Source: Buxus sempervirens (taxonomy: Eukaryota > Streptophyta > Magnoliopsida > Buxales > Buxaceae). Taken from it: DNA of 64,000 nt. This document shows positions 6,660 through 58,258 of this stretch, one piece after another (position 1 is the stretch's first letter; the number at the start of each line of letters is the position of its first letter). The stretch spans positions 45,341,220-45,405,219 of the forward strand of contig OX387186.1 in the NCBI GenBank assembly GCA_947561395.2. Direction: 5' to 3'. The position numbers were made by a program, and so were the translations under genes. The notes below the pieces were generated by a model that ran no database searches, was not told where the DNA came from, and saw nothing but the letters and a program-made list of their open reading frames with translations.

Positions 6660-6790
6660 GAATTTTAACAGAGGCAATACTTATTTACATGTAATATCGT
6701 TTAAGTAAATGTCCTCGTATTTTTTAATCTCCATTTACTTAAGATATTACATGTAAATAAGCAAACACCCCCCCCCCCCCCCCCATTTGA
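6660..6790. repeat. Inverted repeat plus a poly-C run in solo LTR copy A
   Basis: CTTATTTACATGTAATATC and its near complement GATATTACATGTAAATAAG flank a short spacer containing GTAAATGTCC. A run of about 17 C follows. A related block with CTTAAGTAAATGTCC and CATGTAAATAAGG occurs at about 25345-25415 in the other LTR family. Confidence 0.7.
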
Positions 6791-7790
6791 ATCCATTAAA
6801 AATAGTTCCAGACCCAAATTCCAAGTGAATAAAAAGTCAACTTTCCAGTTCCAGGCTAAATTCCAGTTTTTCAGGTCCGGTAAAAAGATTCAACATGTTA
6901 AAACCAAGGTATTCGTCTAGATTTAAAATCTCAAAAAATTCTTTTATGCAATAACATGGCTAAAACCTAATTACTGGGAAAAATTATCTTGAAATCTTAC
7001 TTTAAAAAATATTTCATTTTCTGGGGTCAAAAGTCAACAAAATTCAACCGGAAAAAGTTTGACTTTGCACAAAAGATTGAATTCGGGCCTTTTCCTTTGC
7101 GGTTTTGGATTCAAATGGGTTAAGGATCTCAAACCCAATGCAAAGAATTGAAAATTCCAATAAAATATTTCTCTCCTTCAAGATTTATCAAAAATCGTGC
7201 AATTTTGAAGTGTCTACAAGGTGGTAATCACATATCTCCCATGTGGGATGCAATCCAATCTGGACTACATCTCCACTACATCTCACACACAAGTGGTAAT
7301 CACATATCTCATCCGCAGATGGTAAACAATTCTCCCATTGTCATCATGGCATTTAATCTATTCTTTGGTTCACGAAAGAGTATAAATTCACAATCCAAAT
7401 CTCATATATAAAACAGTTTGTTCATGATCAATCTATAATCCAAAATCTATTGGCAATACTCTTTATATTTCAAAACATGGGCTCGATGTACACAGGTCTA
7501 TTATAAAAGCATTTTTATGAATTTCAGGACTTGAATCAAACCTAAAATAATGTGTTACATGTGTATAAGACAACCAAATCAATTTTAAACTGATTCTAGA
7601 GCAAGAGTTTTCCTTTCAAACCAAATTAAGACCTATTCTTATAGAGCGTACACAAATTATTTTGAATCAAACAATCAGTGGAAACAGTTCTTAAATACTT
7701 AATATTAGTTGGTTCAAATATTTAATAATATTAAAAGTCATTTTATATTGAAATTTCTCTCAAAATTCAGAAAAATGAGAATCTGTGATG

Positions 7791-9369: not shown

Positions 9370-9770
9370 GGTAAATTACACTTACCTCCCTTGAGGTATG
9401 ACATAATTACACTTACCTCCCTTGGGGTTTCTGATATAACACTGTCACCCCTTGACATTTATGTGTGGGTCACACTAACACCCCCTCACTACATTTTTCG
9501 TATTAAAAAATAAATAACTTTTGAATATATGACTAAAAATTAATTTTCTAAATTAATTTTTAGTCATACATTCACAAGTTATTTATTTTTTAAAATTAAT
9601 TTTTAGTCATACATTCAAAAGTTATTTATTTTTTAATACCGAAAATGTAGTGAGGGGGGTGTTAGTGTGACCCACACATAAACGTCAAGGGGGGACAGTG
9701 TTATATCAGAAACCCCAAGGGAGTAAGTGTAATTATGTCATACCTCAAGGGAGGTAAGTGTAATTTGCCC
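9370..9770. mobile_element. 401 bp Mutator-like foldback MITE
   Basis: The two halves are inverted copies of each other almost from end to end. Termini are GGTAAATTACACTTACC and GGTAAGTGTAATTTGCCC. The 10 bp direct repeat AATTTTTTAA flanks both ends (9360-9369 and 9771-9780), fitting a 9-10 bp Mutator-type target duplication. It has no coding capacity. Confidence 0.9.
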
Positions 9771-12304: not shown

Positions 12305-12787
12305 ATAATATTATAATAAATATTTGGTGATACTAATTTATAAGAAAGGTAGAAGGAGAGACTTACTTATAATAATAATATTTATACTAATTTTAAAATC
12401 ATAAAATTAAATAGAAGAATACCTCTTTAGAATGAATCTTGAACTTTGCAATTGAAGCCTTCAACCTCCAGAGTCCAATTTCCCACTTTTGATGCTTGAA
12501 CAATTAGAAGAGATCGAGTATCACCAATTTCCAATTACAACAATTAGAGCAAAGAAACTATTTGATAATCAATTAGAAGAGAGTAGGAGATTGTAGAAGT
12601 GGTGTGGTTTGGAGTGGGAAAGGGAGTGGCTATTTATAGAAAATTAAAAGTGGCTTTTTAACACCTCTACCCTTCAATATGACTGTTATTTTGCAGTTGG
12701 AAGGGTAAAAAAGGTCTTTTAATCATCAATTACAACTATAGCCCCCAAATATAGCTGTTATATGGCTGTTGGGGGGGTAAAATGGGC

Positions 12788-14619: not shown

Positions 14620-15886
14620 TCATGGAGTTGGGTATGAAGCATCCATGGCAATACCACAGAGGCCTTCCTTTGTAGTAACATCTCTTTGCATCCTTATGTA
14701 TCCAGCCTCCCCCCAACTGGTTCCCCATGAATTTTTCACTAACCAATACTTGGTTCCATTGTTGCTTGCCCCATAACCAACCGCGGCGACACCATGGTCG
14801 AGTTCAGTTCCACATGGTCCATTGAAGACTCCGCTCGAATAGAACTGGAAGTCAGTTCCACTAGCATCAATGGCAACAGAAATAGGTTGGTTGGCAACAG
14901 CCTTTAGTAGTGCTTTCTCATTGTTAACAGGAACATCTTCATGACCAGTGATGTTTGCAGCATGAGAAGCTTCTTTCTTTTTGTTGCAACTTCCATCAGC
15001 CCCTTTGTAAGGGTAGTTAGCTTCAGTGGTGAGGCCATGGTTCTGTTGGATGAATTCAAAGGCACTGTCCATGAGGCCACCTTCACAACCTTGATCCTCT
15101 TTCCTATCGCAGTCCACCAACTCTTGCTCCGACAAAGATATTAACTTACCAGTACTGAGTTTTGTAATTCCTTCCGTGGCTGCAACTGCTGAAAATGCCC
15201 AACAAGATCCTATATTTGCATACAACAGGTAAGAGGTCCAAACATTCAAGCTAAATGTAAATTGATTGGCAACACAAATATTAAAAAGAGTCTTGGTTTG
15301 CCATCCCAATGTATTAAACAGCAAATCTTCAGTAAGGTCATGTGTATTCAAATTATCTCTAACAAAATGCAACTTGGACCTTTTGTTACATATATAAACA
15401 ATAATAAGTTTACAGAGGAGAAAATTCTTCTTTCTTACCACATTGGCCTTGGTTCTTTATGGGGGTTACAGCTCGTTTCTTTCTCCAATCCATACTAGCC
15501 GGCACTGCAGTCATGTATTCATATCTGAATGATTTTGCTTCTGAACCAGGCCTCAGCTTTGATGTTGCCCTCTTCATATACCCATTACGCGAGGCTATGA
15601 ACTCTTCATTTGTTTGGTCTACAAATTCATTGACACTTAGCCTATATGGTTTGTCACCACGGTTATTGTGAGATTCTATATGTTCAACATTTTTCTTGAA
15701 TATCTCGAAGCGCCTCTCCTTCTCGGATGCATCATCATAAATGCGGCCATAGTGTGCTATCCATTGCTCGTACCTCTCAGACATGGATATGTCTTGGAAA
15801 GTTCGAGACATGGTTGGAGTCGCCCACATTCCCAAAATAAAGAGCAATACCAAACAGGTGCATTGAAATTTGTTCGTAAAAGCCAT
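14620..15886 (-). CDS. Papain-like cysteine protease (SAG39/vignain-type), two exons
   Basis: Exon 1 is 15886-15439 and exon 2 is 15209-14620. The 229 bp intron has GT-AG borders and joins in frame at QGQC|GSCWAF, giving 345 residues, the usual size of the family. Residues 1-27 form a hydrophobic signal peptide. About 36-95 is the I29 propeptide with the ERFNIN-type helix and the [11 protein letters not shown] segment. The mature enzyme starts near V128. The catalytic triad is C152 (GSCWAF), H288 (LDHGV) and N309 (VKNSWG), with the oxyanion glutamine in NQGQC. There is no granulin domain or KDEL tail. Possible N-glycosylation sites lie at NIT and NGT. Such enzymes degrade protein in the vacuole or secretory pathway during senescence, immunity or tapetal death. 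The frame is clean and all key residues are present, so it is probably functional. The exact subgroup is inferred. Confidence 0.95.
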
Positions 15887-15957
15887 GAATTTAGCAAGTG
15901 GCTTTGAAGACAGAATCGAATGAGTGATTGGAATGCATGAACCATTTGGTTGCTTAT

Positions 15958-15967
15958 GTTTATATAG
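15958..15967 (-). promoter_or_regulatory. TATA box of the cysteine protease
   Basis: The minus strand reads CTATATAAA, about 75 bp upstream of the ATG at 15886. This leaves room for a leader of about 45 nt. Confidence 0.7.
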
Positions 15968-16003
15968 AAAAACTTTTCCTCTTGTGATCTGTTGATATCC
16001 ATT

Positions 16004-17340
16004 TGATCATTGAATTGTACTCTTCTCTGTTGTGCCGTTAAAGTCGTTGTGATTCAAATGAGATAACCCATTTCCGTGGAGTAACATTCTTCCATGTTGT
16101 CACAATCAACAAAATTTTGATTTTGGGGAAGTTGCTCCCATATGTTGTAGATTCATAACATGTCTGTAATGTGTATTCTATAATATTTTGGCCCCTTAAA
16201 TTAATACCAATAGTTTATTAACAATTACGTGCTTTATTTGCATTTTAAAATGCTGTCATCATCCCATCTAACTCTTTCAAATTAAGGGTCTTTCACAAAC
16301 TCATATCTTTGTATGTAAACTCATTATATTTTATATATTCTTGCCCCTATTTTATTAACAAGTTTGTTCTGTTCTTTGTGTTTCTTGGATTCAATATATA
16401 AAACATTCAAATTAATGGTCTTCTTTGACTATAGTTATGCCCAAAGAATAATTATAACAATTTAAACCACTAGATGATGCCAAAATGAATCAGAATAAAA
16501 TACCTTGCACAATCATTTGGGTTAAGTGGTTATATCTTCTGAATCATTATATCTTACAGATTATTCAAATACTGCAACCCCATTGAAACACAGGGAAGGA
16601 TAATGAGTTGTATCAATTTCACTTCACTACCCTAGAACACACTTGGGCAGAACCCAGAAAACAGAACTACAAATGATACATTTAAAAGAATAATCATATA
16701 TTTGCATAAAACACTTCTTTGTAATGATATGATAAATCAGAGCATATGACAATCTAGTGCACGTGAGATAATCAAGAATATGACTTTAAGGGGGAAAATG
16801 AACTGGTTAAATCTCTTCTAATGTCATTCATCAATGCTTTTTTAAGGCAAAAAACCTGAGAAAATTTAGTGGGTAATATGGTACAAGAAGAAAATCCTTT
16901 GGACTAAGTAAACAAAAAGTGTATGGTTTAACCAGATTTCAGAAATGGATGAAACTGTGATGTATGCCTGATCTATCTTGAGTTGGATTTTTTTCATTTT
17001 AATGACCTTGCATTTGCGGAACTTGGAACAAACACAAACTTTGGATCCATGTTTAGTATAAGAAATTATAGTTTGTTATGGATTAGGTCAAATAACTCTG
17101 ATGAGTAAATATGCATTACTGATAATTAATAAGGTACAGTGGTCACTGGACCACTTCTAATACCTCAAGCAAAAAATTTCCTCATCAAAGATTTGCTCTA
17201 CATAGGATCTGTACATCCGCAAGTCTTGTCAAGACTGAACTTATACGCACAGCACTTCCACTAGCAAAGAGATTCAACTTCATGCTAATATTAACAAACA
17301 GTGATGACCCACAAATATTCAATTAATCTTCACCTTAGCT
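16004..17340. other. Intergenic between the protease and the prolamin-like gene
   Basis: This AT-rich segment includes the upstream region of the protease. No coding segment, repeat termini or RNA gene was recognised. Confidence 0.5.
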
Positions 17341-22629: not shown

Positions 22630-22906
22630 TATTTTTAGGGCTTTTTACATTCATACCCCTATATTATGATATATATCCTCTTGTTTTTAATATTTATATT
22701 TATACCCATCCATTCAACATAATTGTTGTAGATGTACCCTAATGTCAAATTCCATTAAATTTTGTTATTTATTTTTATTAAATGGTTAAATTAACCTTTT
22801 ATAAGATGAGAAAAAGATTTTAAATAGCCAAATGACTATGGGTCTCGGTGGAATTCCAATGAAAAATTATTAATCAAACAAATTAATATCAATCACTTAA
22901 AGTATA

Positions 22907-23359
22907 GGGAAAATTAATTTTAAGTGATACTTTTTCAATATAATTCAGATTTAGTCAGTAAAGTTTTTAAATTTAATTTTTAGTGAACCTTTATCAACAT
23001 AATTCATTTTTAGTATCTTTTTACAATTACAAATCAACTATTCCAAAAATGCCCTTACATCACTTATCCAAATGACTTGTATAAATCACTCACTCAAGAT
23101 ACAAGTCATTTTATTGACTTGTACAAGCCAATTTATTGACTTGTAGAAGTCTAAACTGGCTTGTATAAGTCAATTTATTGCTTGTATAAGTCCTGGAAGT
23201 GAATTGTATAAGGGCATTTTCGGGAGAATTTATGCGTAGCAGTTAAATGGTACTAAAAATTAATTATTTTGATAAAGGTTCACTAAAAGTTAAAAGACAA
23301 AATGTTACTAACTGAATCTTAATTATGTTGAAAAAGTATCACTAGAAGTTAATTTTCCC
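22907..23359. mobile_element. 453 bp Mutator-like MITE
   Basis: Inverted ends GGGAAAATTAATTTTAAGTG / complement of GGGAAAATTAACTTCTAGTG continue into GATACTTTTTCAAYATAATT. The exact 9 bp duplication TAAAGTATA flanks it (22898-22906 and 23360-23368). It is non-coding, and the centre holds repeats of GACTTGTATAAGTC. Confidence 0.92.
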
Positions 23360-23699
23360 TAAAGTATATACAATCTCTACTATACATAAAGCGAGGCGCC
23401 CTTTTTGGGAAGTGTGCCAAACTAATTTATAACACTTTCCATGTAAAACCCCGACCCGGATTATATCTTAATTATTAAGATTAATTATCTAAAGTGTGAT
23501 TATTAGACTAATTAAGTAATTGTGTTACGAAGATGAGGTAAATGTGGATTATTCTTGAGGATTTAAATAAATCAAATGAACTGTATGAAGGTTATTAAGG
23601 AAAATTTAATCAATGTTATTTCTCAATTCCAATTGTCTAAGATACTTTCCAATTAGCTTAAATGAATTGGAAATCAAATTCTGAAAAATTGGACTTATG

Positions 23700-24430
23700 T
23701 GTACCTAGAGTAATTCCCAAAATATACCCAAGGTACCCTCTCAAATACCACTAAAGTACCTCTTGTATTACCCAAGGTACTCCCATTGTATACCCAAAGT
23801 ACATCCATGTACTACTCAAGGTACCATCTAAGTATACCTAAAGTATCCCCTAATTATACCTAAGATACCTCATTTGTATTGTCTAAGGTATCTCTTTATT
23901 TTAACTAAGGTACCCTACTATTTTACTTGAAGTACCCCTTGTTTAGTTGAGGTACAGCCCCTTATATAGCTAAGGTACCCCCTCTTGTAGCTAAGGTACA
24001 CCCGTCTATAACTCAGGTAACCCTCTTATATTACTAAGGTACACCCCTCATGCTACCAAGGGTACACCTCCTTGTATTTCCTAAAGGTACCCCATGTATA
24101 ACTAAAGTACACCCCTCAATAATCAAGGTACCCCTCCTCAATATAACTGAGGTACACCCTCCTAAGCTTATTCAAAGTTTACCCCTTAGAATAACTAAGG
24201 TAAATCCCTTGGAACATCAAGGTACCTCCTCAAATAACTAAAGTACCCCTCATATAACTGAGGTACCCTTCTGTGTTAACTGAGGTACACCCCCCAAGCA
24301 TTCCTAAAGCATGCCTTTTGAAGTGGCTAAGGCAAACACCCCATTTAACACTAAGGTACCCCACTTAATACCAAGGTACCCCACTTGAATAACACTAAGG
24401 TACCCCTGGTATGCCTTAGGTACACCCTAG
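23700..24430. repeat. Degenerate GGTAC array in the solo LTR U3 region
   Basis: About thirty irregular units of roughly 20-30 bp carry (A)AGGTACMCCCY, often as GGTACC. They lie upstream of the TATA box at 24491. Confidence 0.9.
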
Positions 24431-24490
24431 GGTTTTAGTTGAATAAAAGCCTTGTTTAGGGGCAGATTTGAAAGACCCAAAACTTGGGCA

Positions 24491-24497
24491 TATAAAA
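24491..24497 (+). promoter_or_regulatory. TATA box of the family I solo LTR
   Basis: GGGCATATAAAAGGATG lies just after the GGTAC array and before a purine-rich leader. This gives the element plus orientation. Confidence 0.6.
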
Positions 24498-25049
24498 GGA
24501 TGCCCTAATTTCTAATTAAGGGTTTGAAAACCAATTTCTCTTGTCTTGGACGTATAGATCAAGAGAGGAAGATTGTGAGCTCATATGGAAGCTTGAGCAA
24601 GAAGAAAAAGAAGAAGAAGGAGAGGAGAACTTGAAGAGAAGTTGTGCTTCTCCATTATCAAGTAAGTAGCAAACCCTTCCAAACAAAATGAATTACCAAC
24701 TTTCGTATTCTCTCTCTAGGGTTTGGTTTATTTGATGAAATGATCTTGCATGATGGTTTGGACTTCTAAAATTCGTAGGGTTTTGATTGTATGATGATCT
24801 TGGTTATTTTTCTATTGATTTGCCATGGACTTCCAACTCTATTGATCCTATTTTATATTAGGGTTTGAGATTTGTGTCTTGAATGAGGTTTCATGCGTTT
24901 GATTTGTGTTCATGTGGATTTGAGATGAATCTTTGTTTCAGAAGATGTTTTTAAGTGTGTTGGGATGTTTTGTAATCACCTACTTTGATATTGGAAAGGT
25001 TGTAAAGGATTTAAATGAGTTTTGTGTTGAAATTAGTCAAAATACTTCA

Positions 25050-25310
25050 AAATCCCGACCCCACGATTAATCCTGAAAGTTGGCGATTAATCCTGAGCCA
25101 AACCCCTAAAAACAAGTCTCTGTTATCATTAAATCGCGAAACAGGATTAATCGCCCAGAGCTAATCGCGACCTTAGCGCGCGAACGTAAACCTTCAACGT
25201 GCACGCGCTACCTTTGTTTTAAACCTCAAAGCCCGAACTTTAAAGCTCAACGCCCGAACACTAAAGCTAATCGCCATTGGACGATTAATCCACAACCTAA
25301 TCGTGGACCC
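25050..25310. repeat. GATTAATCGC / AATCGCGA palindrome cluster
   Basis: CGATTAATC, GGATTAATCGCCC, CTAATCGCGACC and CTAATCGTGG recur at intervals over about 250 bp downstream of the TATA box. This occupies the same LTR position as the GCTTAAGC palindromes of the other family I copy. Confidence 0.7.
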
Positions 25311-25845
25311 TGTTTCTTGAGTTCTTAAGCCTTTTTCTCCCCAAGCATTTCTTAAGTAAATGTCCTGTGTATTTATTGCTCCATTTACTTAAGTCTTTAC
25401 ATGTAAATAAGGTTTTACCCCCCATTTGGAACCAATAAAAATACTCTCAAGGCCCAATTCCCAACCAATAAAAAGTCAACTTTCCAGTTTGTGCCTAATT
25501 TTCCAGTTTTCCCGATTTTCATAAAAGGCCACTTTTTGAGTTTGATATCCAAACGAGTGATTCAGAAGCCCAGAAAATTTTAGATGATTTGTATACCCTC
25601 CAACAGACTACAACCAGAATTTGAGCACCAAACTCCTTGTAGATCTGTCTAGAAAAATTCTACACCGAAAAGTCAATGTTTTCATCCAGACTTAGAATAT
25701 TTTCGAGGTCCAAAACTTTTTGTCTCGGAATCCATTGATTTTTGGTAGGATGACTTATTTGAGCATTCTAAGACTACTCCACTCGCCCGAAATGTGTTTG
25801 AGGATTTTATGGTACCTGTTTTGATTGACTTTGGATTTCATGAAC

Positions 25846-26030
25846 CGGGGCAGCGTAGAAGTATTCCACTAGGCCTTGATTCATCGGGCAGCGCAGAAGT
25901 ATTCCACTTGGCTTTGATGCGTCGGCGGTGTAGAAGTACTCCACTTGGCCTTGATTCTGTCGGCAGTGTAGAAGTACTCCACTGGGCCTTGATTCGTCGG
26001 CAGTGTTGAATTACTCCGCTTGGCCTTAAT
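25846..26030. repeat. ~41 bp minisatellite, five copies
   Basis: Units of GGCAGYGTAGAAGTAYTCCAC followed by TTGGCCTTGATTCGTC recur with a few substitutions per copy. Confidence 0.92.
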
Positions 26031-26897
26031 CTTGGACAACGATCATTAATTTGATTTGGACATTTGACTTGGAATGGTTGATTTGATTTCATGAATTACC
26101 CGATTGAGATATTTGACTTGGAATTTCACTTTATATCTGTTTGAGATGTTTTGGTTTACATTTGGTATCTTATACTTGTGAATATTACCATGATATTACG
26201 AAATTGCATAAACTATTTCTCTGCATGCATGTTTGCTGCTTACTGGGACTTTATGTCTCACGCGTGTTTTGTTTTCCCGGATTTGTTTTCAGATCCGCTT
26301 GGTGAGCCGCGTATTGGGGCAGGCATTGAGGGTGAGCTTGAGTAAAGGCTAGAGGGCTACCATTTCTACTCGTAGTAGGGTTCTTATTATGATGATGTAT
26401 TTTGTCTTGGGGATTGTATATGGGATGTAAATAATATTTTTGGACTTATACTCTTGGAAGAATCTTTTGGACATGTCTATATATTTTGGAGAGATCATTG
26501 TAAATGGTTAGTTGCCTTAGTTGTATTTTATTCACATATATATCATGTTTTGGAGATTATAGTACAGATGACTTTTTGATTATATGGAAAATTTTTATTC
26601 CATGCTTCTTTAGTCATGCACTCTGATAATTACATTGTAATTGCCCAGGAAATTGTGTTTATCAGGTTCTATTGGGCCCACAAGTAGGTCTCGGGTACGG
26701 GTTGGTGCTGTGATAGGGCAGACCCGGATCTGGGGCGCTACATTCCACCTTTGCCCACACAAATCAACACCACCGTCACTAAATGTAGGGATATGCAGGG
26801 ATATAATTGGCAAAAAAATTTATCCGCTCTCTGAATCCTAGAATTCAGTTCCGCAACTACCCACCCACGTCCACTGTTCCCTCCCGTCTACCTCGCG

Positions 26898-27182
26898 ATG
26901 AAGACCTCGCCGGATAGCACACAGTCCTCACAGAATCCTCCATTATGCATTATCGTTTCCGCCAAATACCCCTACTTCTTAACATTCGATTCCAACACAA
27001 AAGCCAGACATCTACATCGTAGGCTTATAGAAGGTGTCGCCGGAAAATATCCTCTAACGGATTATACTCGCCCCTTTTATCCTGCTATCATCGGTACCGA
27101 TATTATCCTCATCTCCGACCCACAAAATCGCATTTTATTCTCAAATTACAAGGTACACCTCAGCATCGCCTTTACTTCTTAA
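26898..27182 (+). CDS. Unrecognised exon-like frame near the Helitron 5' end
   Basis: This is an ATG-started open segment of 94 codons. Its body (CIIVSAKYPYFLTF ... FYPAIIGTDIILISD ... ILFSNYK) looks protein-like, and a possible GT donor follows FSNYK (AAG|GTACACC). The remainder up to the stop would then be intron. I do not recognise the family. It could be a captured host exon or a Helitron accessory gene. No continuing exon was secured. Confidence 0.3.
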   Translation: MKTSPDSTQSSQNPPLCIIVSAKYPYFLTFDSNTKARHLHRRLIEGVAGKYPLTDYTRPFYPAIIGTDIILISDPQNRILFSNYKVHLSIAFTS

Positions 27183-27410
27183 TCAGGTTCAATCGTTTTT
27201 CTTCTAATTTTCAAGAGTTCTTATGCTAATTGTCGGCTTTCAATTCTCAAATGTTTGTAAAATAAATTAAGGTTTTGATTTCAAGATTCTCAATATCAAT
27301 CGTCTCAGTGGTTTCCCCCAACTACACCATCAATGTCCTTCTTCGATCAGTTGTCACACTTACATTGCTTCGAAGGATAACGAAGAGACGGCTTTGAGGA
27401 CGACGAATCA

Positions 27411-28118
27411 GGTATGAATATGATAGCCCTTGACAACCCATTCGTTCGTTTTGAGTCGTTTACTTCAAATGCAACAAATTTGAACATTAATTATAATGTA
27501 TGAAAATGGTGTGGACATTTATTGAGAACTTGGTTGGTCTGGATGAATGAAAATGGTGTGGAACGTGATTAAAAACTGATTTCTTAGTCTCTGTTTTCAC
27601 CTCTCCACTTTCATACTCCACTTACTAATTCCTTAGTCTCTGTATTCCTCTCTTTTTTATCACATTTTCATCTCACCAATTTCCCTCTATATTCCTGTTC
27701 ATTTTTGTTTCATTTTTTACCTGGATTCATGTGGTGTTTGTACCCCAACCCATTCTTCCCCGCAGGTATGAATATGACAACCCTTGACTACCCGTCCTTT
27801 CGTTTTGCATCGTTTACTTCAAAAGCAACAAATTTGAACATTAATTATAATGAATGAAAATGGTGTGGAAAGTTATTGAGAACTTGATTAGACTTGATGA
27901 ATGAAAATGGTTTGGAAAGTGGAATAAAAACTGATTTCTCAGACTCTGTTTTCACCTCTCCACTTTCATATTCCACGTACTAATTCCTTAGTCTCCGTAT
28001 TCCTCTCATTTTATCACATTTTCATCTCACCATTTTCCCTCTATATTCCTGTTCATTTTCGTTTCATTTTTTACCTGCCTTCATGTGGTGTTTGTACCCC
28101 AACCCATTCTTCCCCGCC
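27411..28118. repeat. 354 bp tandem duplication in the Helitron
   Basis: 27411-27764 and 27765-28118 both start GGTATGAATATGA and both include AACAAATTTGAACATTAATT, GTCTCYGTATTCCTCTC and ACCCCAACCCATTCTTCCCCGC. They are clearly diverged. 28119-29387 has no recognised feature. Confidence 0.9.
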
Positions 28119-29387
28119 GTTAATTTACATATTACTTTATGCAATTATAGTTGCTTAAAACCTTATTATATGTTTACCTACTGTTTGTTGAAATACCTAA
28201 GATATCATATGTTAAAATATCTGCCACATTCGTTTGCCAGAGTACAGGGAGAATTTCTGGTTTTTAAACTTTTTATAATTCTACACATGGGTCTCGGTCG
28301 CATAGTCCAGTTACCTCACTTGGTTATACCAATCGCCATTCAATGATCTCCCCCAACTCTACCATCACCACCCTTTTTATCTGTCGACAACATTGCACAA
28401 ATTGGTTTATAAACTGAAATTTTTGGGTCTCGGTGTGGTGGTCAAAATGGATTACACACCTGAAATTATTTGGGCACGGTGTTTTCCGCCACTCTTTCAT
28501 TTACCAGGTGCTCAGATTCGTTCCAATCACTATTTTGGTCCTCTTTGTTTATTTTCTGATGTCGCAAGAGGTTTGGCATAAAAAACTTAATAACAACAGC
28601 GAGTAGAGAACTATGGAAACTGAGCATCATTTTCCTCCTCCCATCATCAGATACGTCAATTTCTTTTAAACATCTACATCTTTTCCATTTCGAGCATTTT
28701 TGTGTTTTCTTGCTTATGCATTATATTTGGGTAGTTGGAGGCCATTGAGAAATATGTCAGATTATGCATTATAAGTTTAGAAATATTCCCCATTGGTTGA
28801 TAGAACTATTTTTTCTTTCAAATAGTACACTACCATTTGTGTGTACATAATTTTAGTTATGTAGCCACACAAGCATATCCATATGCTCTCATGCATTATG
28901 GATTTTCAAATTTTTACTTGGTTTCCCATACTTTTTATCTCTCAATTTGCATCAAGTAAATGCATCGTATAGGTCTCCAGTATAATAAGATACACTCAAG
29001 ATAAGGTCTCCAGTATAATAAGATACACTAATATAGTTTCAATCTTACTGGAAAGTAAATGAAAAGATAACTAAGCATGTATCAAGGGAACACGCAACAG
29101 CATATGAGAGAACATGCATAAAATCAAATCTTATTCCTAAGACAAAGTCTGATTACAAATTACTCACATAATAAAGAATATGAGGAAATGAAAGATGGTG
29201 CCAAGAGTGCTCATTTCACCATAAGAAAGTATTGAAATCACTGTTACTGAGTCACTTACTGGGCACACTCAGCAAGTTTTCCAAGGTTTTGATTATCCAA
29301 TATTGCCAAAATCAACTTCTTATTTTCATCAAGGTACTGCAACACACATAAAACAAACAGTCAATGCATAGATTTGTTGACACAATT

Positions 29388-30150
29388 GAATTGAAAATAA
29401 AGTAAGCAGTAACCTTAGTGATCTGATTAACTATGCATGAAAACAGAACTATCTAGGCCTATGTGAAAGTAATAAGAACAAATTAAAAAAATAAAATACG
29501 AACCCAGGAATTCTGGACACAACAACCATTCTATAAATTCTTTTTTATCATGTTTCCAACAGATAATAAATTTCTGGTAACTGGAATGCTTTGAGGAATT
29601 TACTGCAGAAGGTTACTTGATTATAAGCATAATAAAGCCATCTGAATTGAGAATAAAGTAAGCATTAACCTTAGTGATCTGATTAACTATGCATGAAAAC
29701 AGAACTATCTAGGCCTAAGTGAAAGTAATAACAACAAATTAAAAAAAGAAAATACAAACCCAGGAATTCTGGACACAACAACCATTCTACAAATTCTTTT
29801 TTTTCATGTTTCCAACAGATAATAAATTTCTGGTAACTGGAATGCTTTGAGGAATTTACTGCAGAAGGTTACTTGATTATAAGCATTATCAAGCCATTTG
29901 AATTGAAAATAAAGTAAGCAGTAACCTTAGTGATCTGATTAACTATGCATGAAAACAGAACTATCTAGGCCTAAGTGAAAGTAATAACAACGAATTAAAA
30001 AAAGAAAATACAAACCCAGTATTTCTGGACACAACAACCATTCTACAAATTCTTTTTTATCATGTTCCCAACAGATAATAAATTTCTGGTAACTTGAATG
30101 CTTTGACGAATGTACTGCAGAAGGTCACTTGATTATAAGCATAATAAATG
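29388..30150. repeat. Three tandem ~256 bp repeats in the Helitron
   Basis: Copies start at 29388, 29644 and 29900. Each runs from GAATTGARAATAAAGTAAGC through TCTGGACACAACAACC to GGTYACTTGATTATAAGC. The differences are mainly substitutions and short A/T length changes. Confidence 0.93.
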
Positions 30151-31565
30151 CATTGTACAGGTAATGGAATTATGCTATGTATCCAAACATCTCATAACTT
30201 TTGTTGGCATGAGATTTTGTTTTAGAAAATACTTAACTAAGGTGCATATGCCCAGCTTCCTCTAAATCTTGGTTACAATGTAAAATTTGAAGACAATTCA
30301 GTGAGCCCATATTATTCAAACTCCTACTTTAATATTTCTAAATAGTTTTCACTACATAACAATAGGGTTGTTCTTATTAATCATGTTTATTGTCTTTGTT
30401 TATTTTCACATTCTCATTCAAGATTTCATTCCCATTATTTTCAGTTCAACGGGATACAATTAACTTCTTCACGTTGGAATAACATGTTTTTCATGATGTA
30501 CTATTGCTTAGTAGTTGAAGGTATCTCTTTAAATTGAATTCACATTCTTTTTTGTAATTTCAGCTCATCTTTTGGTATTCCAAGATGCCGTGCTCAAAGG
30601 AAGTGCATCATATGTGAGCGTGGGACTACTAAGGAAGTACATCAAACACAAGTGACAACCGGTATGCAACTTCCATGCGTCTATTACATGTATTCAATTA
30701 AATATCGTTTGGTTCTATATGTCATGCAACTTTCCTTTAAAATCAATAAATATTTAAATATCGTTTTAAGCATGCTTCCATGGAATAAATATATTCAAGG
30801 TTTCATGTTCCACAAAATTCGGATTCGGAATTGTATGTTACATGCGTATGCAAATATTGATCAATTGCTCATAACACTTGAATATTGGAAAAAAAAAACA
30901 AATACTGAAATTAGCATTACTAATATCATTGTCACTTTTCTTATGAGCTATATTGACAATTCTCATTTCTAGCAAAGTCGATATTGCATAGTCATTATTT
31001 CATGTTTATTTCTTACACGTTAAATTCTGTGGTGTTATGCCAGTAGTATTTTGCATACAGATATTGTGCATAATTTTCAGCTTCTTAATAGTAATATTAT
31101 ATATTTTTTATAGTAACCCTGTTATAAGTTCATTATTTTTCTCATATAGAATCTGATCATCAAGCCACTCATAATTGTATAGACTACCAATACAATTCAT
31201 ATATTAATTAACACTTTCCTAAAATATGCCCATATACAAATATTACATAATCATGAAAAAAGGAAGTTCTCATACTATTACATACCCCAAAGCTTAGCCC
31301 TGCTATGAAGCTTTGGTTATGTTAATTCTTTTCAACTAAATGAAACCATGCATTATTAATTAATGCATATACCACCAAATGGTACGGAATTTATTCCGAT
31401 CCATTGTCCATGCAACTATATCTCCTGAAGTTCCCCCATATAACATGTTAAGAACATTGCTTTTGGGGTGTCACTTCATAAATCCATCTCCCCATCTATG
31501 TTTACTCATTTAAAATCCGTCCTCTTTACTCATGTTTTAACATAGAAAACCAAATTTGTTAGGAA

Positions 31566-34500
31566 ATGGTTCGAAGCCAACATCTTCCAGCTGTCTCGAT
31601 CAACCCCACCACCTTTAACCCTTCGAGCAGAAGATTTACGAATGTGAATCGAGCTAGCCGTCACTCTATATCAATACCTACAACAATCAATACTGGACGT
31701 ATCCTTCGCTTGAGCCATGTAAGACGTCAGGCACGTTCAATTGCACAACAGCCAGATTTTAATTTGGAAGAATCTCACACGTCAACAGAAGGTGGCCCCA
31801 GTCTGCCTATTGAAATACGTAGTGGTACGTTAAAAATATTTCCTCAACGCATATTATCTACTCGCTCACATTAACAATACTTAAATTATGCAACACAGGC
31901 GCTTCTGGTTCCACAGTTCAAGAAACTTCACTCCCCAATGATGTTCCTTTGCAACGTAGACGCCGCCGAACAGTGCAAAACTGTGCAAGGGACTTCATGG
32001 ATAACAACACTTTGCACATTGACATGTTACCTGAAGGAAATGTCTGTGCATATTGTGGCGCTAAGCTATTTAAGTATGAAAAGATGGAGCTATGTTGTGC
32101 AAGTGGAAAGATAAGATTGCCATATGTTCCTGTACCGGCAGAATTATTACATATCTATGCGGATCAAGGCCCCGAAGGTTTAAACTTTCGGAAAAACATT
32201 CGTATCTTGAACCATTTGTTTGCATTCACGTCAATGGGAGTTCAAATAGATGAGAACCTAGCCAACGCTCAACATGGTATTTACACGTTTCGAGCTCATG
32301 GTTCAATATACCATAAAGTTGGAAGTTTATTACCACAACAAGGTTGTAGACCTAGATATCTGCAACTTTATATTTATGACACTGAGCACGAAATGGATCA
32401 TCGAATGTTGGAAAACAACTCCGTGGATATATTGTTGGTCGAAAAGATCCAACACATCCTTAATCGGCACAACCCATTCGTGCATATTTTCCAACAATTG
32501 GGAATGCGTCAAGATTTGCCAGATTGTCGGCTTCTCATTAAGGAGTTGCGCCCTGCACAACACCAATACACAATGCCGAATGCTTCGCAAGTCGCAGCAA
32601 TAATTATTGGAGTCGATAATTTATCTGAATGCGCACAACGGGATATCATCGTACAAACACACGGAGATATGTTGGAAAATGTACCAGATACCACAAGCTA
32701 TTATGATCCATTACAGTATCCACTTCTATTACCTTATGGAAGTTATGGTTGGGATGTAAACACATCGACATACAGTGGCCAAAACATTAGCTGTCGAGCT
32801 TTCTATGCTCATAAGCTTCAGGTACATTATCATCTACTTGCTAACATTTGTGTTTCACACATATTGTTGCATCCATACCACTAATTGCATTAAAAATTTA
32901 CCTAGATACGGAATGGATATGAGTCATTACTATTGCGAAGAGGACGTCTGCTGCAACAATATGTAGTTGACAACTGGGTTAAGATTGAAACCCAGAAGCT
33001 GCGGTATATTCGGGACAATCAAAATACCATACGCGCAGAATTGTATCAAGGCTTACAAGATTCACTGCAAGCTGGTGAAACTATAGCAGGTATATTTAGA
33101 AAATTTTCCTTCAAAAACACTACATGATATTTTAGGCCTTGCATAATTAAATTTCCCTTAGGCAATGTTGGACGACGCATCATTCTTCCTTCTTCTTACA
33201 TTGGGAGTCCAAGGGATAAGTACCATCGTTATCAAGATGCAATGGCTTTAGTCCAGAGATACGGCAACCAGACTTATTCATCACAATGACATGCAATCCA
33301 ACATGGGATGAAATAACGAGAGATCTCCTTCCAGGCCAAACAGCCCAGGATCGTCCTGATTTAACAACAAGGATATTCCGTGCAAAGTGTGAAGAACTCA
33401 AGAAGGACGTTTTAGACAGAAAGGTACTTGGTGTCGTAATTGCACATGTTCACGTCATTGAATTTCAAAAACGAGGCCTTCCTCACGTACACATGCTGAT
33501 CATTATGGCTGAGACTGATAAACTCAATAATCCTGATCTCTACGATGGTGTTGTACGAGCTGAAATTCCTGATGCAAATATCGAACCCAGTTTACATGTT
33601 GCAGTTTCACGACATATGCTTCATGGCCCGTGCGGACAGCTTAATTCAAGGTGCTCATGTATGAGGGATGGCAAGTGTAGCAAAGGTTATCCACATCAAT
33701 TTTCACATTCAACAATGCAAGGCAATGACTCATATCCAATTTACAGAAGACGTGATAACGGATTTTTTGTTACAAGAAATAGCTATCAACTTGACAACAG
33801 ATGGGTTGTACCTTATAATCCTTGGCTCTTGAAGAAGTACAACTGTCACCTCAATGTTGAAATTTGCTCGAGCATCAAATCAGTTAAGTATCTGTACAAG
33901 TACATTCACAAGGGTCCAGATCGTGTAACAATGGCAGTTCGTCCAAGAATCAATTCTTATAATGATGAGATAATGCAGTTCATTGATGCACGTTGGGTTT
34001 GCCCACAGGAGGCCATGTGGAGGATTTTTAAGTTCCCAACCTCAAAGATATATCCTTCTGTTTACGCAATGCAGATTCACCTTCCCAATAGGCAGCAAGT
34101 GACATATTATAGTCATCAGCCTATTGAAGCTGTTTTATCCGATGAGAACTTATCAAGAACGATGCTTACTGAATTTTTCCATAAAAATTCAACAGATGCA
34201 GAAGCTCAATAGTCATTATACCGTGAATTTCCAGAAAAATACCGATGGATGCAAGGACAAAAATGTTGGAGAAGAAGATGTACTACACAACGTGTAGTAG
34301 GAAGGATATATACAGTTTCTCCAGTAGAAGGTGAACGATATTATTTACGCATCCTTCTAAATCATGTTAGAGGACCAACATCATTTGATGATCTCCTAAC
34401 TGTTCATGGGAATATATGTTCGTCATTCAAGCAAGTGGCTGAGCAAATGGGACTGCTAGAAAGTGATCATAGCATTAGAGATTGTTTGCAAGAGGCTTCG

Positions 34501-36221
34501 AGTGTACATATGCCTACGGCACTGCGTAGACTGTTCGCAACAATCTTAGTTTATTGTGAGCCTACAGGTGTGCGTCAACTTTGGGATGAGTTTTATCCCT
34601 ACTTAACTGAAGATTTCGGTTCATCAAGCCGTGGAAACACCGCATCTGTTACAAATCGTCTTCTAAGTGAAATTAATGATGTGTTGCGACAGTATGCAAA
34701 ATCTGTATTTGAATATGACTTACCTACATTTCATGATGATGGTCAAGAAGGAATGACAAATCAGAGAATGATATATGAAGAAGAAGCAATCTCTGTATCC
34801 GAAGAAGATTTGGCTGCTGTGTCTGTATTGAATCGTGGACAAAGATATGCATTTGATAAGATTATCGACGCTGTGCACCAAGCCAATGCCTCGGTATTCT
34901 TTATCGATGGTCCTGGTGGAACAGGAAAAACATTCTTATATCGTGCAGTACTAGCAACTCTTAGAAAAGAGCATAAAATATGTCTCGCAACTGCTACATC
35001 AGGAATTGCTGCAATGATACTTCCAGGAGGTCGTACGGCGCATTCAAGATTTAAGATCCCAATTCGATTAACCAGTGCTTCTTTTTGTACGATAAGCAAA
35101 CAATCTGAATTGGCTGAATTGTTGCGTCGTGCATCTGCTATTATCTGGGATGAAGCTACAATGACACATAGACATGCATTTGAGGCTTTAGATAGGACGC
35201 TTAGAGATCTCATTGGTGTTGACCATCCTTTTGGAGGTAAGATTGTTATTCTGGGCTGAGATTTAAGACAAGTTCTTCCTGTAGTTCCGCGTGGGACACG
35301 TTCAGAAACATTCAATGCATGCATTATTAGGTCACAAATTTGGGCATATGTACAAATCATTCACTTGACCGAAAATATGCGTGCCGTAACTGATCCTCAA
35401 TTTTCAGAGTTCTTATTGAGAATTGGTGAGGGGCTCGAGCCAACTTTGGATGACAACTTCGTCAGAATTCCTGAAGACATGGTAATCCCTTGGAGCGATA
35501 ACGAGGAAATGTCAGCTCTAATTGCTTCCATCTTCCCATCTTTGACTAGCAATGCACAAGATCGTGCGTACATGACAGAAAGGGCTGTATTAGCCCCAAC
35601 AAATGAATGTGTGGAGCGATTTAATGAAGCTGTCATTTCTGTATTTCCAGGAGAAGAAATCGTGTACCACTCATACGACACAGTTGAAGATGATACTCAA
35701 AACCTGTATCAACAAGAGTTTCTTAACTCAATCGCACCAGGTGGATTACCTCCTCATAAACTACGGTTGAAGCTGGGATCGCCAATCATTTTATTGAGAA
35801 ACATTGATCCGAAAATTGGCCTTTGCAATGGGGCAAGGATGCTATGCCGGGGATTCCAGCGAAACCTAATTGATGCAGAAATTGTTACTGGTCATTTTAT
35901 TGGAACACGGGTCTTCCTACCACGAATACCTCTGAGAACATTCAGTTGCCTTTCACCTTAATAAGGAAGCAATTTCCTTTTCGGTTGAGCTTCGCACTTA
36001 CAATTAATAAAGCCCAGGGACAAACCATACCACATGTCGGCGTATATTTTTCTGCTAATGTTTTTAGTCATGGACAACTTTATGTTGCATTGTCCCGTGG
36101 AGTTTCAAAGAATAGTACCAAAGTCATGGTTAAGCAAGGAAAAATAGAACGACAAATTGGAACTTACACAAGGAATGTTGTCTACAAAGAAGTTCTACTC
36201 AATCATATGGAAGGTCACTGA
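31566..36221 (+). pseudogene. Helitron Rep/PIF1-type helicase, four exons, inactivated
   Basis: Exons 31566-31824, 31899-32821, 32906-33089 and 33162-36221 have GT-AG borders and join in phase. Together they span about 1475 codons. An arginine-rich N-terminus is followed by a cysteine cluster (CAYCGAKLFKYEKMELCC) and the Helitron-like N domain. The Rep nuclease carries the HUH motif GLPHVHML (near 33475) and the tyrosine helix KYLYKYIHKG (near 33893). The SF1 helicase has Walker A GPGGTGKT (near 34909) and ends with KAQGQTIPHVGVYF and the LYVALSRG motif. Breaks are a one-base loss near 33267, an in-frame TAG at 34210, an in-frame TGA at 35257 and a frame change near 35930. The enzyme that would nick and unwind for rolling-circle transposition is therefore not made intact. 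Confidence 0.93.
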
Positions 36222-36372
36222 AGGTATGCAACTTTTATCAATTACGGCATGCAGAATGCACGTGTAGTACTACAAATGTAAATGCACATTAATTGAAATG
36301 TACAAACTTTTTAAGTTCATTTTTAGAAATGTATTTTTAGTTACTTACCTGGTTCTTTGACCTTTTAGGACA

Positions 36373-36657
36373 ATGCCAACTAATAAGGATCTAAAGGGAC
36401 AGTGCAAAGCATCATCCAGTTATGCCACGAGGACTCATCGTCGTCCCCCCCACCCTGGGTTCGAGCAGTTGAGGCTATTTTTGGATAAAATGCCTCCAAC
36501 CTTTAGTGGAGCTACGGAAAATGTGCTCACTGTTGATGAATGGATTCGGATTCTTGATCATATTTTGATGCGCATGAGATGTTCGGAGGTTTACAAGACT
36601 ATTTTGGCAAGCATCATGTTACAGGGAGACGCAAGTGAGTGGTGGCGTATAACATAA
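36373..36657 (+). pseudogene. Retrotransposon gag-like fragment inside the Helitron
   Basis: About 95 codons start 150 bp after the helicase stop. The features MPPTFSGATE, VDEWIRILDHIL, MRCSEVYK and MLQGDASEWW resemble the N-terminal part of a plant Ty3 gag (retrotrans_gag). A stop follows WWRIT, but similar coding text seems to go on briefly (WCTFVDMVLQRYG, near 36690-36722). There is no zinc knuckle, protease or RT. It is either a captured fragment or the start of an accessory Helitron gene, and the first seems likelier. Confidence 0.6.
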
Positions 36658-36729
36658 AAAATGATATTGCAGGGCGCGACTCCTCCGTGGTGTACATTTG
36701 TAGATATGGTATTACAACGCTATGGTTCT

Positions 36730-39700
36730 ACAGAGGAAAGTCCTCAACGAACGGGATCCTGGCGTCCTTGGCCATGAGAATAACATGATACATTGTGTAA
36801 GTATGATTTCTCATGATAGTTTTACTACATTTCATCAAAAAAAAATTTGTACTTCTTTATATTGTTGCGTAATTTTCCCCCTATCTTTTATCTATCAGGT
36901 AAAGATGTAAATAATGTAATATATTAGTGTCAGTCCATTTGCTGTACAAGTGCATTTTGTTACATCAGCAATTCGCCCTCATGGCAGTCATATCAACATC
37001 CAATGGTGTGCTACTAATGCTCCTTCAAAATCCAAAACATTCTAGCTCAAAAAGTTTATACCTGCCAGTGTAACCAAGCACAAAGGCCATATTTACAGAT
37101 TCAGGTATCTTAATTATGTAGTCTTCACATTTATGAAATGTATTTTTCATTTCTATTGCATTGAGTAATTTTTTCTTCTTATCAACAAATTCTTTATCCA
37201 TGAAACGGATGTGGTGAAAATTTTAGCTTCTTTATTGTCTTCTTTAGTATCTATTTGCTATATAATTTTCTTCTGCCAACTTTATCATTTCCTTATGATG
37301 GACAATTTGGATTATTCATGGCTTATATTATCATATTATCCAGATTCAGCATGTACTGATATGGTGATTGTACATTTTGTTTGTGCAGATTATGTGTACA
37401 TTGATAAGTATTATGCATTTTGTAGTTTTATGAATTGCTGCATACAGCTTAACAATGTTATGTTGTCACAAAGAAGCACTTCATATCATTAATTGTTACA
37501 TGTAGAAAGCATGTCTGATGAGCATGTACAAGTTACTCAGTAAAATGAGGAAACCAAAAAATCAGATTTATAAGAAAGTGTTATAAATGTCACTGGTAAG
37601 GTGCTCTAGGTACATTGTTCTTCTAATCTATTTTGCATCATCAAGTATCATTGTTTGCTTTATTTGTGACTGATACAAATTTCATGCTTCCATACTTGAT
37701 GAAGCTAAATTATAAGGGCATATTAGCAACCACAGAAACTATAACTCTTTGACTTCATGTTGTTTTGTTTGTGATGATATATTGAACTGTCTTAACTATA
37801 TCCATTGCTTAATTGGCACTAACAATAGATTGTGATTGTATGATGGTAACATATCCTTGAAGCTCTGACTATTGGTGTTTATTAAATTCCAGGTTATTCA
37901 CAAACCATGATGTTTTAGTACCCTGTTTCACCTTTTGGAACTGGCCTATTCAATAAGTGGAAGTATGAAGCTACCATTTAAGTAGTGGAGATGTAGTAAG
38001 CTGGGAATAACAGACAACGTTAACAATTACTATCAACTTTGCAATATTGTATAGTGTATGTTAGATTATTCTTTTTCTGCATACTTTGCACATTTTTCTG
38101 TGGTCCAGTTTGCTATTTTTCAGATGTCGGTGATATTCCAACTATTTGGTTCTGTGAGTTCGTGTAACAAGGCTTATCAAGATACCTGTTAGTGATGAAG
38201 GCAATGCAGTCAAATTTGAGTTTTCCAATGGCAGTTATTTTTTGGAATTTTTCTTTGATTTTGGTTTTGCTCTGTTCGGAATCGAGGTCAGACTGTTGTG
38301 TCCAAAAGCACTATATGCAGGTGCTCCAGGTCGAGGGTATTATGTCGATCTGATATATTAATCCATTTCGTCCAACTACTCATCGAATTAACTTGATCAA
38401 GTTTACAGTTTTGATATATAGAACTTCTGCAATGTTGTTGAGATTTTGCAATGCTGAATGATGCGGCTTTCGATCTTTCAAATGGATAATAACTGTTCCA
38501 AGTAAACAAGATCTCCTCCTTTTCATGTTGGTATTTTTTTTAAGTTACTATTACCATGTTGAAAATGATTTTTTAATAGATTTTTCTCAAGGAGTTTATC
38601 CTCTGAGTGATGCTGCTATTTTCTGTGAACACACCTGTAGAAACCTGTTTACTGTCAAGTCTTTTGTATAACCAAGGTTTCACCGGTGGCCTACCTTTTA
38701 AGTTTTAAACATTGTGTTTTTTGCCCTCATTTTATGACAGTGAGGTTTATCTGCTCATGCTTTCAAATTTCCTTTCTCATACTTCAAGAGTGATTAAATT
38801 GATCTTTGTCAATTAGGTTTTCATGTTCAGCAGAATTATTTTATGCTTATAGACATTTCGATTTTCCTTGGTTTTCTCCAATTACTCATTCTCAGATGCA
38901 TATAAACCACATGCCAGAACAATATGTTGGCATCAGCAGTAAATTGAATGCCCTTTTACAAGGTAGGCATCCTTGCCTAGGAGATTGCCTACTCAATAGA
39001 TTGACATGATTAATGTTCCTATATCAAGTTATCAACTAATGAAGGACGCTGAGTTTATGATCTCTTTTACACAATGACGTTAGTAACATGGTGCTATGGA
39101 CATTCCCAGGTTTCTTCTCTATATCTGTTTCCTTAAGTGCTAAGCAACCTTTTCCTCCCCTTTTTTTTTCCCTATTTGATGAGAAGCAGTTGTGGCGTTT
39201 AAAAGGGTTGAAATAACGTTTTGTTTATTTGATTTTTTTTACTGAGAAGCAGCTGAAAAAATTGATGAATAGAGCTTCAGCTAAGAAGGGTTAGACCACA
39301 TATGAAAATTTACTTGATATATATGGAAATTGCTACAAAGAAATGTTTTGTAGCTGGACGGAGTATTCTTTGTATCCACATTCATTGCTTTTCCTTTTTT
39401 TTTTAAATTAGTGTACTATAAACATGTTTCCAAAAATGGGTACACCTCATTCTACTGGTGCTCTTTCAACAACTCGATTGATTATATACTTTCAAAAATT
39501 GCTATCATGTGATAGGATTCAAGTGTGGTCTCGCTCATTTTTTTCTGTAAGTAGCCCAATTTAGTTTCCAAGGCATTGTGCATTATTGCTTCTAAACAAT
39601 GTTGGGATTTTATTTTACTTATCTTATTTTATTTCTTGCTTTCTCTTTTCTTTTTTGATAAATTTCCCGTAAACAAAAACAACATCAATTTTATATACAA

Positions 39701-39780
39701 TCTCTAAAATAAACTCAATCATAAACTTCTTCCAAGGGAAAAATTAGACACATGGATTTCACCAACTTCCAAATAACATT
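36730..39780. other. Helitron 3' region without a recognised gene
   Basis: This is AT-rich, intron-like sequence with only short open frames. No further helicase, RPA or other Helitron gene was recognised. Degraded captured host sequence is possible. Confidence 0.5.
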
Positions 39781-39796
39781 CGTGCAGTACTGCACG
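39781..39796 (+). repeat. Helitron 3' terminal palindrome
   Basis: CGTGCAGTACTGCACG is a perfect 16 bp palindrome, nine bases before the terminal CTAG at 39806-39809. It is the expected termination hairpin. Confidence 0.9.
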
Positions 39797-40067
39797 TGCA
39801 CTCCGCTAGTAAATATAATAATACAAAGACGTAAGTGAATTTATAAGATAATATAGGAGGATAAATACAATATATTTTTATTTTATAGAAGATTATTTTA
39901 GTCATTTAATAAAATAAACAACAAAATTTAACAAACAGTAATGTTAGGGGTATGATTGTAATGATTATACAAAACGAAAGGGTATAAATACAAATATTAA
40001 AAACAATAGGATATAGATTTAACTATAGTATAATATAAAGACATGGTTGGAAAAAGCCCTATTTTTA

Positions 40068-57741: not shown

Positions 57742-58258
57742 GGACCTTTTGCATCAATATCCTTAAATCATAATATATTTGCAAATTTGTACCCTCTTGT
57801 TTTAGTATTTGTATTTATATCTCTTCATTCAGCATAAATGTTACGGTCATATCCCTAACATTAAATTCCATTAATTTTTATTGTTTATGTTTATTAAATG
57901 ACTAATTAACTTGTAAAATAAAAAATTTGTCGCATTTATCTTCCTACATTATCTTATATTTTCATTTACATTATTATATTTATTTCATTTATATCTTAAG
58001 TTATTTAATTTACTCAATTAATAATTATTCATTGAAACTTAGCATGGTCATATAATCATTTGACTATGTAATAATTTTTATCTTATAAAAAGTTACTTTG
58101 GTCATTAATAAAAAAAACCACAAAAGTTCATTGAATTTAAAATAAGGGGTACAGCTATAATAATTATGCAAAATAGAAAGATATAAACATAAATACTAAA
58201 AACAAGAGGATATATATGCAAATATATTATAATATAGGGGTATGGATGCAAAAGGCCC
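57742..58258. mobile_element. Foldback MITE, uninterrupted relative of the 22.6/40.1 kb element
   Basis: The left end GGACCTTTTGCATC and right end GATGCAAAAGGCCC are inverted, with about 190 bp arms (CCTCTTGTTTTTARTATTTR and so on) around an AT-rich centre. In reverse orientation it aligns with the joined arms 22638-22906 and 39810-40059. A target duplication was not evident. Confidence 0.8.

What the first reader, a model, noticed from the sequence alone, without database searches (positions are those of the whole stretch)
22630..40067. Four-level nested insertion resolved by target duplications and an empty-site relative
A foldback MITE with TSD TATTTTTA at 22630 and 40060 encloses a 453 bp MITE (TSD TAAAGTATA) and a Helitron, and the Helitron encloses a solo LTR (TSD TTCCA). 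The MITE arms separated by 17 kb align in order with the intact relative at 57742-58258, whose sequence passes through the Helitron A|T insertion point. This fixes the insertion order: outer MITE, then inner MITE and Helitron, then LTR.
Basis: seen in the sequence. Interest (0 to 1): 0.7.

Follow-up and report, generated by a model that had tools for sequence, protein, structure and literature searches.

The report
Nested plant transposons, insertion order resolved
A small inverted-repeat transposon in what looks like a plant genome was split by a large rolling-circle transposon and a second small element, and a retrotransposon remnant then landed in the large one; this layering is common in plant genomes and the parts are of known kinds.

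Summary
The MITE halves at 22638-22906 (plus 23369-23373) and 39810-40059 join into one 524 bp element. It aligns end to end with the reverse complement of 57742-58258: 395 of 501 aligned columns identical, score 483 against a maximum of 104 in 200 shuffles. Its TSD is TATTTTTA. Inside lie a 453 bp foldback MITE (22907-23359, TSD TAAAGTATA) and a Helitron (23374-39809, 16,436 bp). The Helitron has 5' TCTCTACTA, a 3' palindrome, CTAG, an A|T insertion point, and a decayed RepHel gene whose five pieces match Helraiser (PDB 7LCC) in order. Inside the Helitron lies a solo LTR (23442-26742, 3301 bp, TSD TTCCA).

Three corrections. There are four elements but three nesting levels. A 5 bp strip of the outer MITE (TACAA) separates the inner MITE's TSD from the Helitron. 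The order of inner MITE and Helitron is not resolved, nor that of inner MITE and LTR.

57742-58258 is a paralogous copy (a related empty site), not the empty allele. No age was obtained. The genome search did not complete (13 tries), so no further copies were checked. This is a well-resolved but ordinary nest; a 15-nt repeat of the left junction is unexplained.

The parts
22630..22637 (.). left TSD TATTTTTA of the outer MITE
   Evidence: exact copy at 40060-40067
22638..22906 (+). left part of the outer foldback MITE (its last 9 bases, TAAAGTATA, are the target of the inner MITE)
   Evidence: co-linear alignment to the reverse complement of 57742-58258
22907..23359 (.). inner foldback MITE, 453 bp, ends GGGAAAATTAA; complementary to itself along its whole length
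   Evidence: TSD TAAAGTATA at 22898-22906 and 23360-23368; self-inverted over positions 1-453, 75% over 470 aligned columns
23360..23368 (.). second copy of the inner MITE TSD TAAAGTATA
23369..23373 (+). 5 bp strip TACAA of the outer MITE between the inner MITE and the Helitron
   Evidence: read in sequence; included in the alignment
23374..39809 (+). Helitron, 16,436 bp (13,130 bp without the LTR and one TSD copy); 5' TCTCTACTA, 3' CTAG, inserted between A and T
   Evidence: ATCTCTACTA occurs once in the window on both strands together; 16 bp palindrome 9 nt before CTAG; hairpin fold; RepHel inside
23437..23441 (.). left TSD TTCCA of the solo LTR
23442..26742 (+). solo LTR, 3301 bp, TGTAAAACCCC...GGGGCGCTACA, TATAAAA at 24491
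   Evidence: TG...CA ends with exact 5 bp duplication
26743..26747 (.). right TSD TTCCA of the solo LTR
31823..36218 (+). decayed RepHel gene of the Helitron (pieces 31823-32881, 33220-34209, 34213-35256, 35260-35958, 35874-36218)
   Evidence: Pieces match Helraiser 7LCC at 125-389, 519-831, 836-1177, 1179-1401 and 1404-1495; Helitron_like_N 2.7e-31, PIF1 2.6e-54 (the first piece has no Pfam match there); in-frame stops at 34210 and 35257 and different frames for the first and last pieces, more stops in 32882-33240
39781..39796 (+). 16 bp perfect palindrome CGTGCAGTACTGCACG near the Helitron 3' end
39810..40059 (+). right part of the outer foldback MITE
40060..40067 (.). right TSD TATTTTTA of the outer MITE
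57742..58258 (-). uninterrupted relative of the outer MITE (related empty site); its own TSD is not clean
   Evidence: within 6 bases of its ends only one 7 bp pair with one mismatch, A-rich

Best explanation
Successive, independent transposon insertions at one locus of what I take to be a plant genome. A foldback MITE with an 8 bp TSD inserted first. A second foldback MITE (9 bp TSD, Mutator-like by that measure) and a RepHel-encoding Helitron each then inserted into it, 5 bp apart, in unknown order; the Helitron went between A and T, by rolling-circle transposition. Later an LTR retrotransposon inserted 68 bp inside the Helitron's 5' end with a 5 bp TSD, and recombination between its LTRs left a solo LTR. 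The RepHel reading frame has since decayed, so this copy can no longer code for its own transposase. Shown: the element ends, TSDs, co-linearity and the RepHel homology. Inferred: rolling-circle insertion, loss of the retrotransposon interior by LTR recombination, and the plant host.
For: Co-linear alignment of the joined halves with 57742-58258, far beyond 200 shuffles; three exact TSDs at element ends; Helitron 5' and 3' termini, palindrome and A|T site; five RepHel pieces on the strand expected from the ends, matching the solved Helraiser protein in order at residues 125-389 (9.5e-20), 519-831 (1.9e-88), 836-1177 (4.3e-60), 1179-1401 (3.8e-35) and 1404-1495 (2.8e-18); Helitron_like_N and PIF1 domains; the HUH histidines and both tyrosines (Helraiser H593, H595, Y727, Y731, named in PMC4778049) kept in the alignment, by my count of residues; no N in the window.
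Against: No second copy of the Helitron, inner MITE or LTR was available to confirm their ends: the genome search did not complete in 13 tries. The relative at 57742-58258 lacks a clean TSD of its own. The alignment alone leaves the junction uncertain by a few bases. The 3' hairpin is only moderately better than shuffles (z -2.0, 9 of 200 as good). No RPA-like domain appeared among the ORFs scanned (26 of the 62 listed outside RepHel), although putative autonomous plant Helitrons carry one (PMC3288121, passages).
Confidence: 0.95

Rival explanations
1. The two flanking MITE halves are two separate truncated MITE copies, or a recombination product, rather than one element split by insertion.
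For: The halves also resemble each other in inverted orientation, as foldback elements do.
Against: The halves continue each other on the relative, leaving only about 20 bases between the two hits and aligning through in one piece, and an exact 8 bp duplication stands at the two outer ends.
Confidence: 0.02
2. Order differs within the second level: the Helitron entered the outer MITE first and the inner MITE landed beside its 5' end afterwards.
For: The inner MITE's 9 bp target (22898-22906) lies wholly in outer-MITE sequence, so both orders leave the same present sequence. This is a choice within the best explanation, not against it.
Against: None; the structure does not discriminate.
Confidence: 0.45
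3. The join is an assembly artefact bringing unrelated repeats together.
For: Repeats are where assemblies fail; reads were not available.
Against: Exact TSDs or Helitron termini at every join, which an artefact would not make; no N.
Confidence: 0.02

Closest known systems
Plant RepHel Helitrons (maize ZmhelA1, 14,632 bp; ZmhelB1 and ZmhelB2 in PMC3288121)
   Same: 5' TC, 3' palindrome and CTRR end, A|T insertion, Rep plus helicase gene, similar size; some reported as interrupted by other transposons (passages and section 12 seen)
   Different: RepHel broken by stops and frame changes; no RPA domain found in the ORFs scanned; 3.3 kb solo LTR near its 5' end
Helraiser / Helibat1 (PDB 7LCC; PMC4778049)
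   Same: RepHel homologous in five pieces from residue 125 to 1495, with catalytic His and Tyr aligned (residues named); TC/CTAG ends and A-T target (passages)
   Different: bat element, reconstructed and active; this copy is decayed
Mutator-like MITEs with 9 bp TSD (e.g. MuTAnT, PMC4486113)
   Same: inner MITE: G-rich ends, 9 bp TSD, terminal inverted repeats; paralogous related-empty-site argument used the same way (passages)
   Different: no transposase or family match could be made; the outer MITE has an 8 bp TSD
Nested transposon clusters whose order is read from nesting (REANNOTATE, PMC2672092; maize 22 Mb region, PMC2773423)
   Same: same logic and same kind of structure (abstract and section 23; passages)
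   Different: the maize stacks are described mainly as nested LTR retrotransposons; here MITEs, a Helitron and a solo LTR

Membership tests
Helitron | 5' TC and 3' CTRR termini | tested here: met
   TCTCTACTA at 23374, CTAG at 39806-39809
Helitron | short palindrome about 10-12 nt before the 3' end | tested here: met
   16 bp perfect palindrome ending 13 nt before the end, 9 nt before CTAG; fold -6.7 kcal/mol, z -2.0, 9 of 200 shuffles as good
Helitron | insertion between A and T without TSD | tested here: met
   ...ACAA|TC...CTAG|TAAA; the relative runs through the point
Helitron | Rep (HUH, two Tyr) plus PIF1-like helicase | tested here: met
   as a decayed gene
Helitron | further copies with the same ends elsewhere in the genome | not tested
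   genome search not answered in 13 tries
Solo LTR of an LTR retrotransposon | TG...CA ends, 5 bp TSD, no internal region or second LTR | tested here: met
   the only other match in the window is a 173-column, 75% resemblance of 25352-25510 to 6701-6870
Solo LTR of an LTR retrotransposon | homology to LTRs of an intact element | not tested
   no plant repeat library at hand and the genome search did not complete
Mutator-like MITE (inner element) | long TIRs and 9 bp TSD | tested here: met
Mutator-like MITE (inner element) | TIRs shared with an autonomous transposase-encoding element | not tested
   no such element available
Mutator-like or hAT MITE (outer element) | TSD length and TIR sequence diagnostic of one superfamily | tested here: inconclusive
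   8 bp TSD, GGGC ends fit more than one superfamily (superfamily rules recalled)

The most novel reading that the evidence does not exclude
The 15-nt repeat TATATACAATCTCTA, which spans the left Helitron junction (9 nt of target plus 6 nt of the 5' end, 23365-23379) and recurs at 39692-39706, 103 bp before the Helitron's 3' end, reflects homology between target and element that helped choose or resolve this Helitron insertion, or a hidden second 5' terminus.
Probability: 0.04. Interest if true: 0.45.

Novelty: new member of a known kind. Interest (0 to 1): 0.17.

Why it matters
It gives a clean, checkable stratigraphy of four insertions at one locus, with the Helitron junction readable against a related uninterrupted copy. 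That is useful for annotating this genome and for defining the ends of these element families, but it does not change what is known of how such elements behave.

Tried and rejected
Four nesting levels: rejected, since inner MITE and Helitron sit side by side in the outer MITE. Helitron starting directly after the inner MITE TSD: rejected, the 5' end TCTCTACTA starts 5 bp later. Captured host genes or RPA in the Helitron: one batch of 28 ORFs (26 of the 62 ORFs of 45 aa or more listed for the two stretches beside RepHel, counted, plus two RepHel pieces) gave no family I find credible beyond the helicase ones; weak listings such as DUF7622 (0.0031) and fn2 (0.011) look like chance. The other 36 ORFs and the LTR were not scanned. 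A gag-like look of the ORF 36361-36654, noticed by eye, had no Pfam match at 0.01 and no gag family appeared at E up to 1, so it is not claimed. Relatives in viral contigs: none for the MITE end pattern and none confirmed for one helicase piece. A second CTAGT with a weaker upstream hairpin exists on the minus strand at 7997 and was not followed.

Literature: five searches. No paper in the held library holds both 'Helitron' and 'inserted into a MITE'; that phrase search is narrow and is no evidence of novelty.

The 15-nt repeat of the left junction: the longest match in 300 shuffles was 13 nt. In real sequence, a first control gave 69 of 600 interior 40-mers with a match of 15 nt or more, but it included the tandem repeats; with those blocks left out it was 5 of 1000, and 0 of 2000 for 40-mers from outside. 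It was noticed by eye before testing, so these figures are post hoc.
Full report
Check of the observation. The window is 64,000 bases, 35% G+C, without N. TATTTTTA stands at 22630 and 40060 and TAAAGTATA at 22898 and 23360. With the 5 bases 23369-23373 added the count is 395 of 501, score 483; 200 dinucleotide shuffles of the joined sequence have mean 70, sd 10.6 and maximum 104. A self-comparison of the window finds the two halves separately: 22632-22886 against 58005-58264 and 39810-40067 against 57734-57982, both reversed and in order. A scan over a limited range of alternative junctions puts the best score (486) at a slightly different pair of ends and the proposed pair at 483, so the alignment fixes the junction only to within a few bases; the exact ends rest on the TSDs and the Helitron termini.

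Outer MITE. Joined, it is 524 bp, 77% A+T, with self-complementary arms and ends GGGCTTTTT on both sides when read inwards. Its TSD is 8 bp. That length and the GGGC ends fit more than one superfamily (recalled rule), so I leave it unassigned. The relative at 57742-58258 is a second, paralogous copy without a clean TSD of its own: a related empty site in the sense used in PMC4486113 (passages), not the empty allele of this locus.

Inner MITE. 22907-23359 is 453 bp, complementary to itself end to end, with ends GGGAAAATTAA and a 9 bp TSD. A 9 bp TSD is typical of Mutator-like elements (stated in PMC4486113, passages).

Helitron. Five bases (TACAA) after the second TSD copy of the inner MITE, TCTCTACTA begins at 23374; ATCTCTACTA occurs once in the window, both strands counted. 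The other end, 39809, is CTAG, preceded by the 16 bp perfect palindrome CGTGCAGTACTGCACG and 9 further bases. The 3' end folds as a single-stranded DNA hairpin, moderately better than shuffles (-6.7 kcal/mol, z -2.0, 9 of 200 as good). The flanks read ...ACAA|TC...CTAG|TAAA..., an A|T insertion. These are the terminal features given for Helitrons in PMC3288121 (passages) and PMC4778049 (passages). The element is 16,436 bp.

RepHel. On the strand that the ends predict, 31823-36218 holds five stop-free pieces of a RepHel gene. Each matches the solved bat Helraiser protein 7LCC, in order: 31823-32881 at residues 125-389 (9.5e-20), 33220-34209 at 519-831 (1.9e-88), 34213-35256 at 836-1177 (4.3e-60), 35260-35958 at 1179-1401 (3.8e-35) and 35874-36218 at 1404-1495 (2.8e-18). 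Pfam gives Helitron_like_N 2.7e-31 in the second piece, PIF1 2.6e-54 in the third and 1.1e-11 in the fourth, and the Pif1 2B domain 3.1e-19 in the fourth; the first piece has no Pfam match at 0.1 and the last only helicase matches below their cut-offs. In the printed alignment the residues numbered H593, H595, Y727 and Y731 in Helraiser (PMC4778049, passages) are matched by histidines and tyrosines; the numbering is my count along the printed chain. The gene is broken: in-frame stops at 34210 and 35257, the first and last pieces lie in other frames than the middle three, and there are more stops in 32882-33240. No RPA-like domain appeared among the ORFs scanned outside RepHel, 26 of 62 listed.

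Solo LTR. Within the Helitron, 68 bp from its 5' end, TTCCA at 23437 and 26743 flank a 3301 bp stretch beginning TGTAAAACCCCGACCCGG and ending CCGGATCTGGGGCGCTACA, with TATAAAA at 24491. No second full copy is in the window; 25352-25510 resembles 6701-6870 (75% over 173 columns). It is a solo LTR by structure. Its family was not tested; the end sequences resemble plant Ty3/gypsy LTRs, from recall only.

Order. The outer MITE precedes both the inner MITE and the Helitron because both interrupt it; the Helitron precedes the LTR because the LTR interrupts it. Inner MITE and Helitron lie side by side, and the inner MITE's target lies wholly in outer-MITE sequence, so either order would leave the present sequence. 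The same holds for inner MITE and LTR. The nest has four elements and three levels.

Mechanism. Shown: ends, duplications, co-linearity, homology of the coding pieces. Inferred from known biology of the classes: insertion of the MITEs by transposases supplied elsewhere; rolling-circle insertion of the Helitron at an AT dinucleotide; integration of an LTR element with a 5 bp TSD followed by recombination between its LTRs. The host is taken to be a plant from the Ty1/copia pieces, the prolamin-like and papain-like genes and the Helitron type; this was not tested.

Against known systems. Nested transposons ordered by nesting are standard: REANNOTATE automates the inference (PMC2672092, abstract and section 23), and a 22 Mb maize region is described as transposons mostly nested within each other (PMC2773423, passages). 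RepHel Helitrons of 12-15 kb are described in maize, and earlier ones interrupted by other transposons are mentioned there (PMC3288121, passages and section 12). I therefore rate it a new instance of a known kind.

Unexplained. TATATACAATCTCTA spans the left Helitron junction (23365-23379) and recurs at 39692-39706, 103 bp before the 3' end. The longest such match in 300 shuffles was 13 nt. In real sequence 69 of 600 interior 40-mers had a match of 15 nt or more when tandem repeats were left in, 5 of 1000 when they were left out, and 0 of 2000 40-mers from outside. It was noticed by eye first, so chance remains the likeliest reading.

Limits. The window's own genome could not be searched in 13 attempts, so no other copies of the Helitron, inner MITE or LTR confirm the ends, and no ages are given.

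Noticed in passing
23365-23379 and 39692-39706: 15-nt exact repeat TATATACAATCTCTA: the left Helitron junction (target plus 5' end) recurs 103 bp before the Helitron 3' end; not reached in 300 shuffles, but noticed post hoc.
   Followed up: partly
29387-30154 and 27409-28122: Tandem repeats inside the Helitron: three 256 bp copies (94-96% alike) and two copies of about 354 bp (about 91%).
   Followed up: no
38896-38962: By eye an exon-like stretch bounded by AG and GT in the Helitron's 3' part, possibly a captured gene fragment; the ORF around it had no Pfam match at 0.01.
   Followed up: partly
1891-3154 and 3494-4762; 4929-5738 and 5831-6646: Direct duplications of 1.27 kb (86% alike) and 0.8 kb (83%) close together.
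   Followed up: no
9370-9769: A 400 bp foldback, 90% self-complementary: another MITE candidate.
   Followed up: no
14623-16006: Papain-like cysteine protease pieces on the minus strand (Inhibitor_I29 and Peptidase_C1).
   Followed up: partly
61268-64000: Ty1/copia pieces on the plus strand (Pol_BBD, RVT_2), running off the window end.
   Followed up: partly
10211-12310: Long minus-strand ORFs that look by eye like a hAT transposase; only the 331 aa piece was scanned and it had no Pfam match at 0.01.
   Followed up: partly
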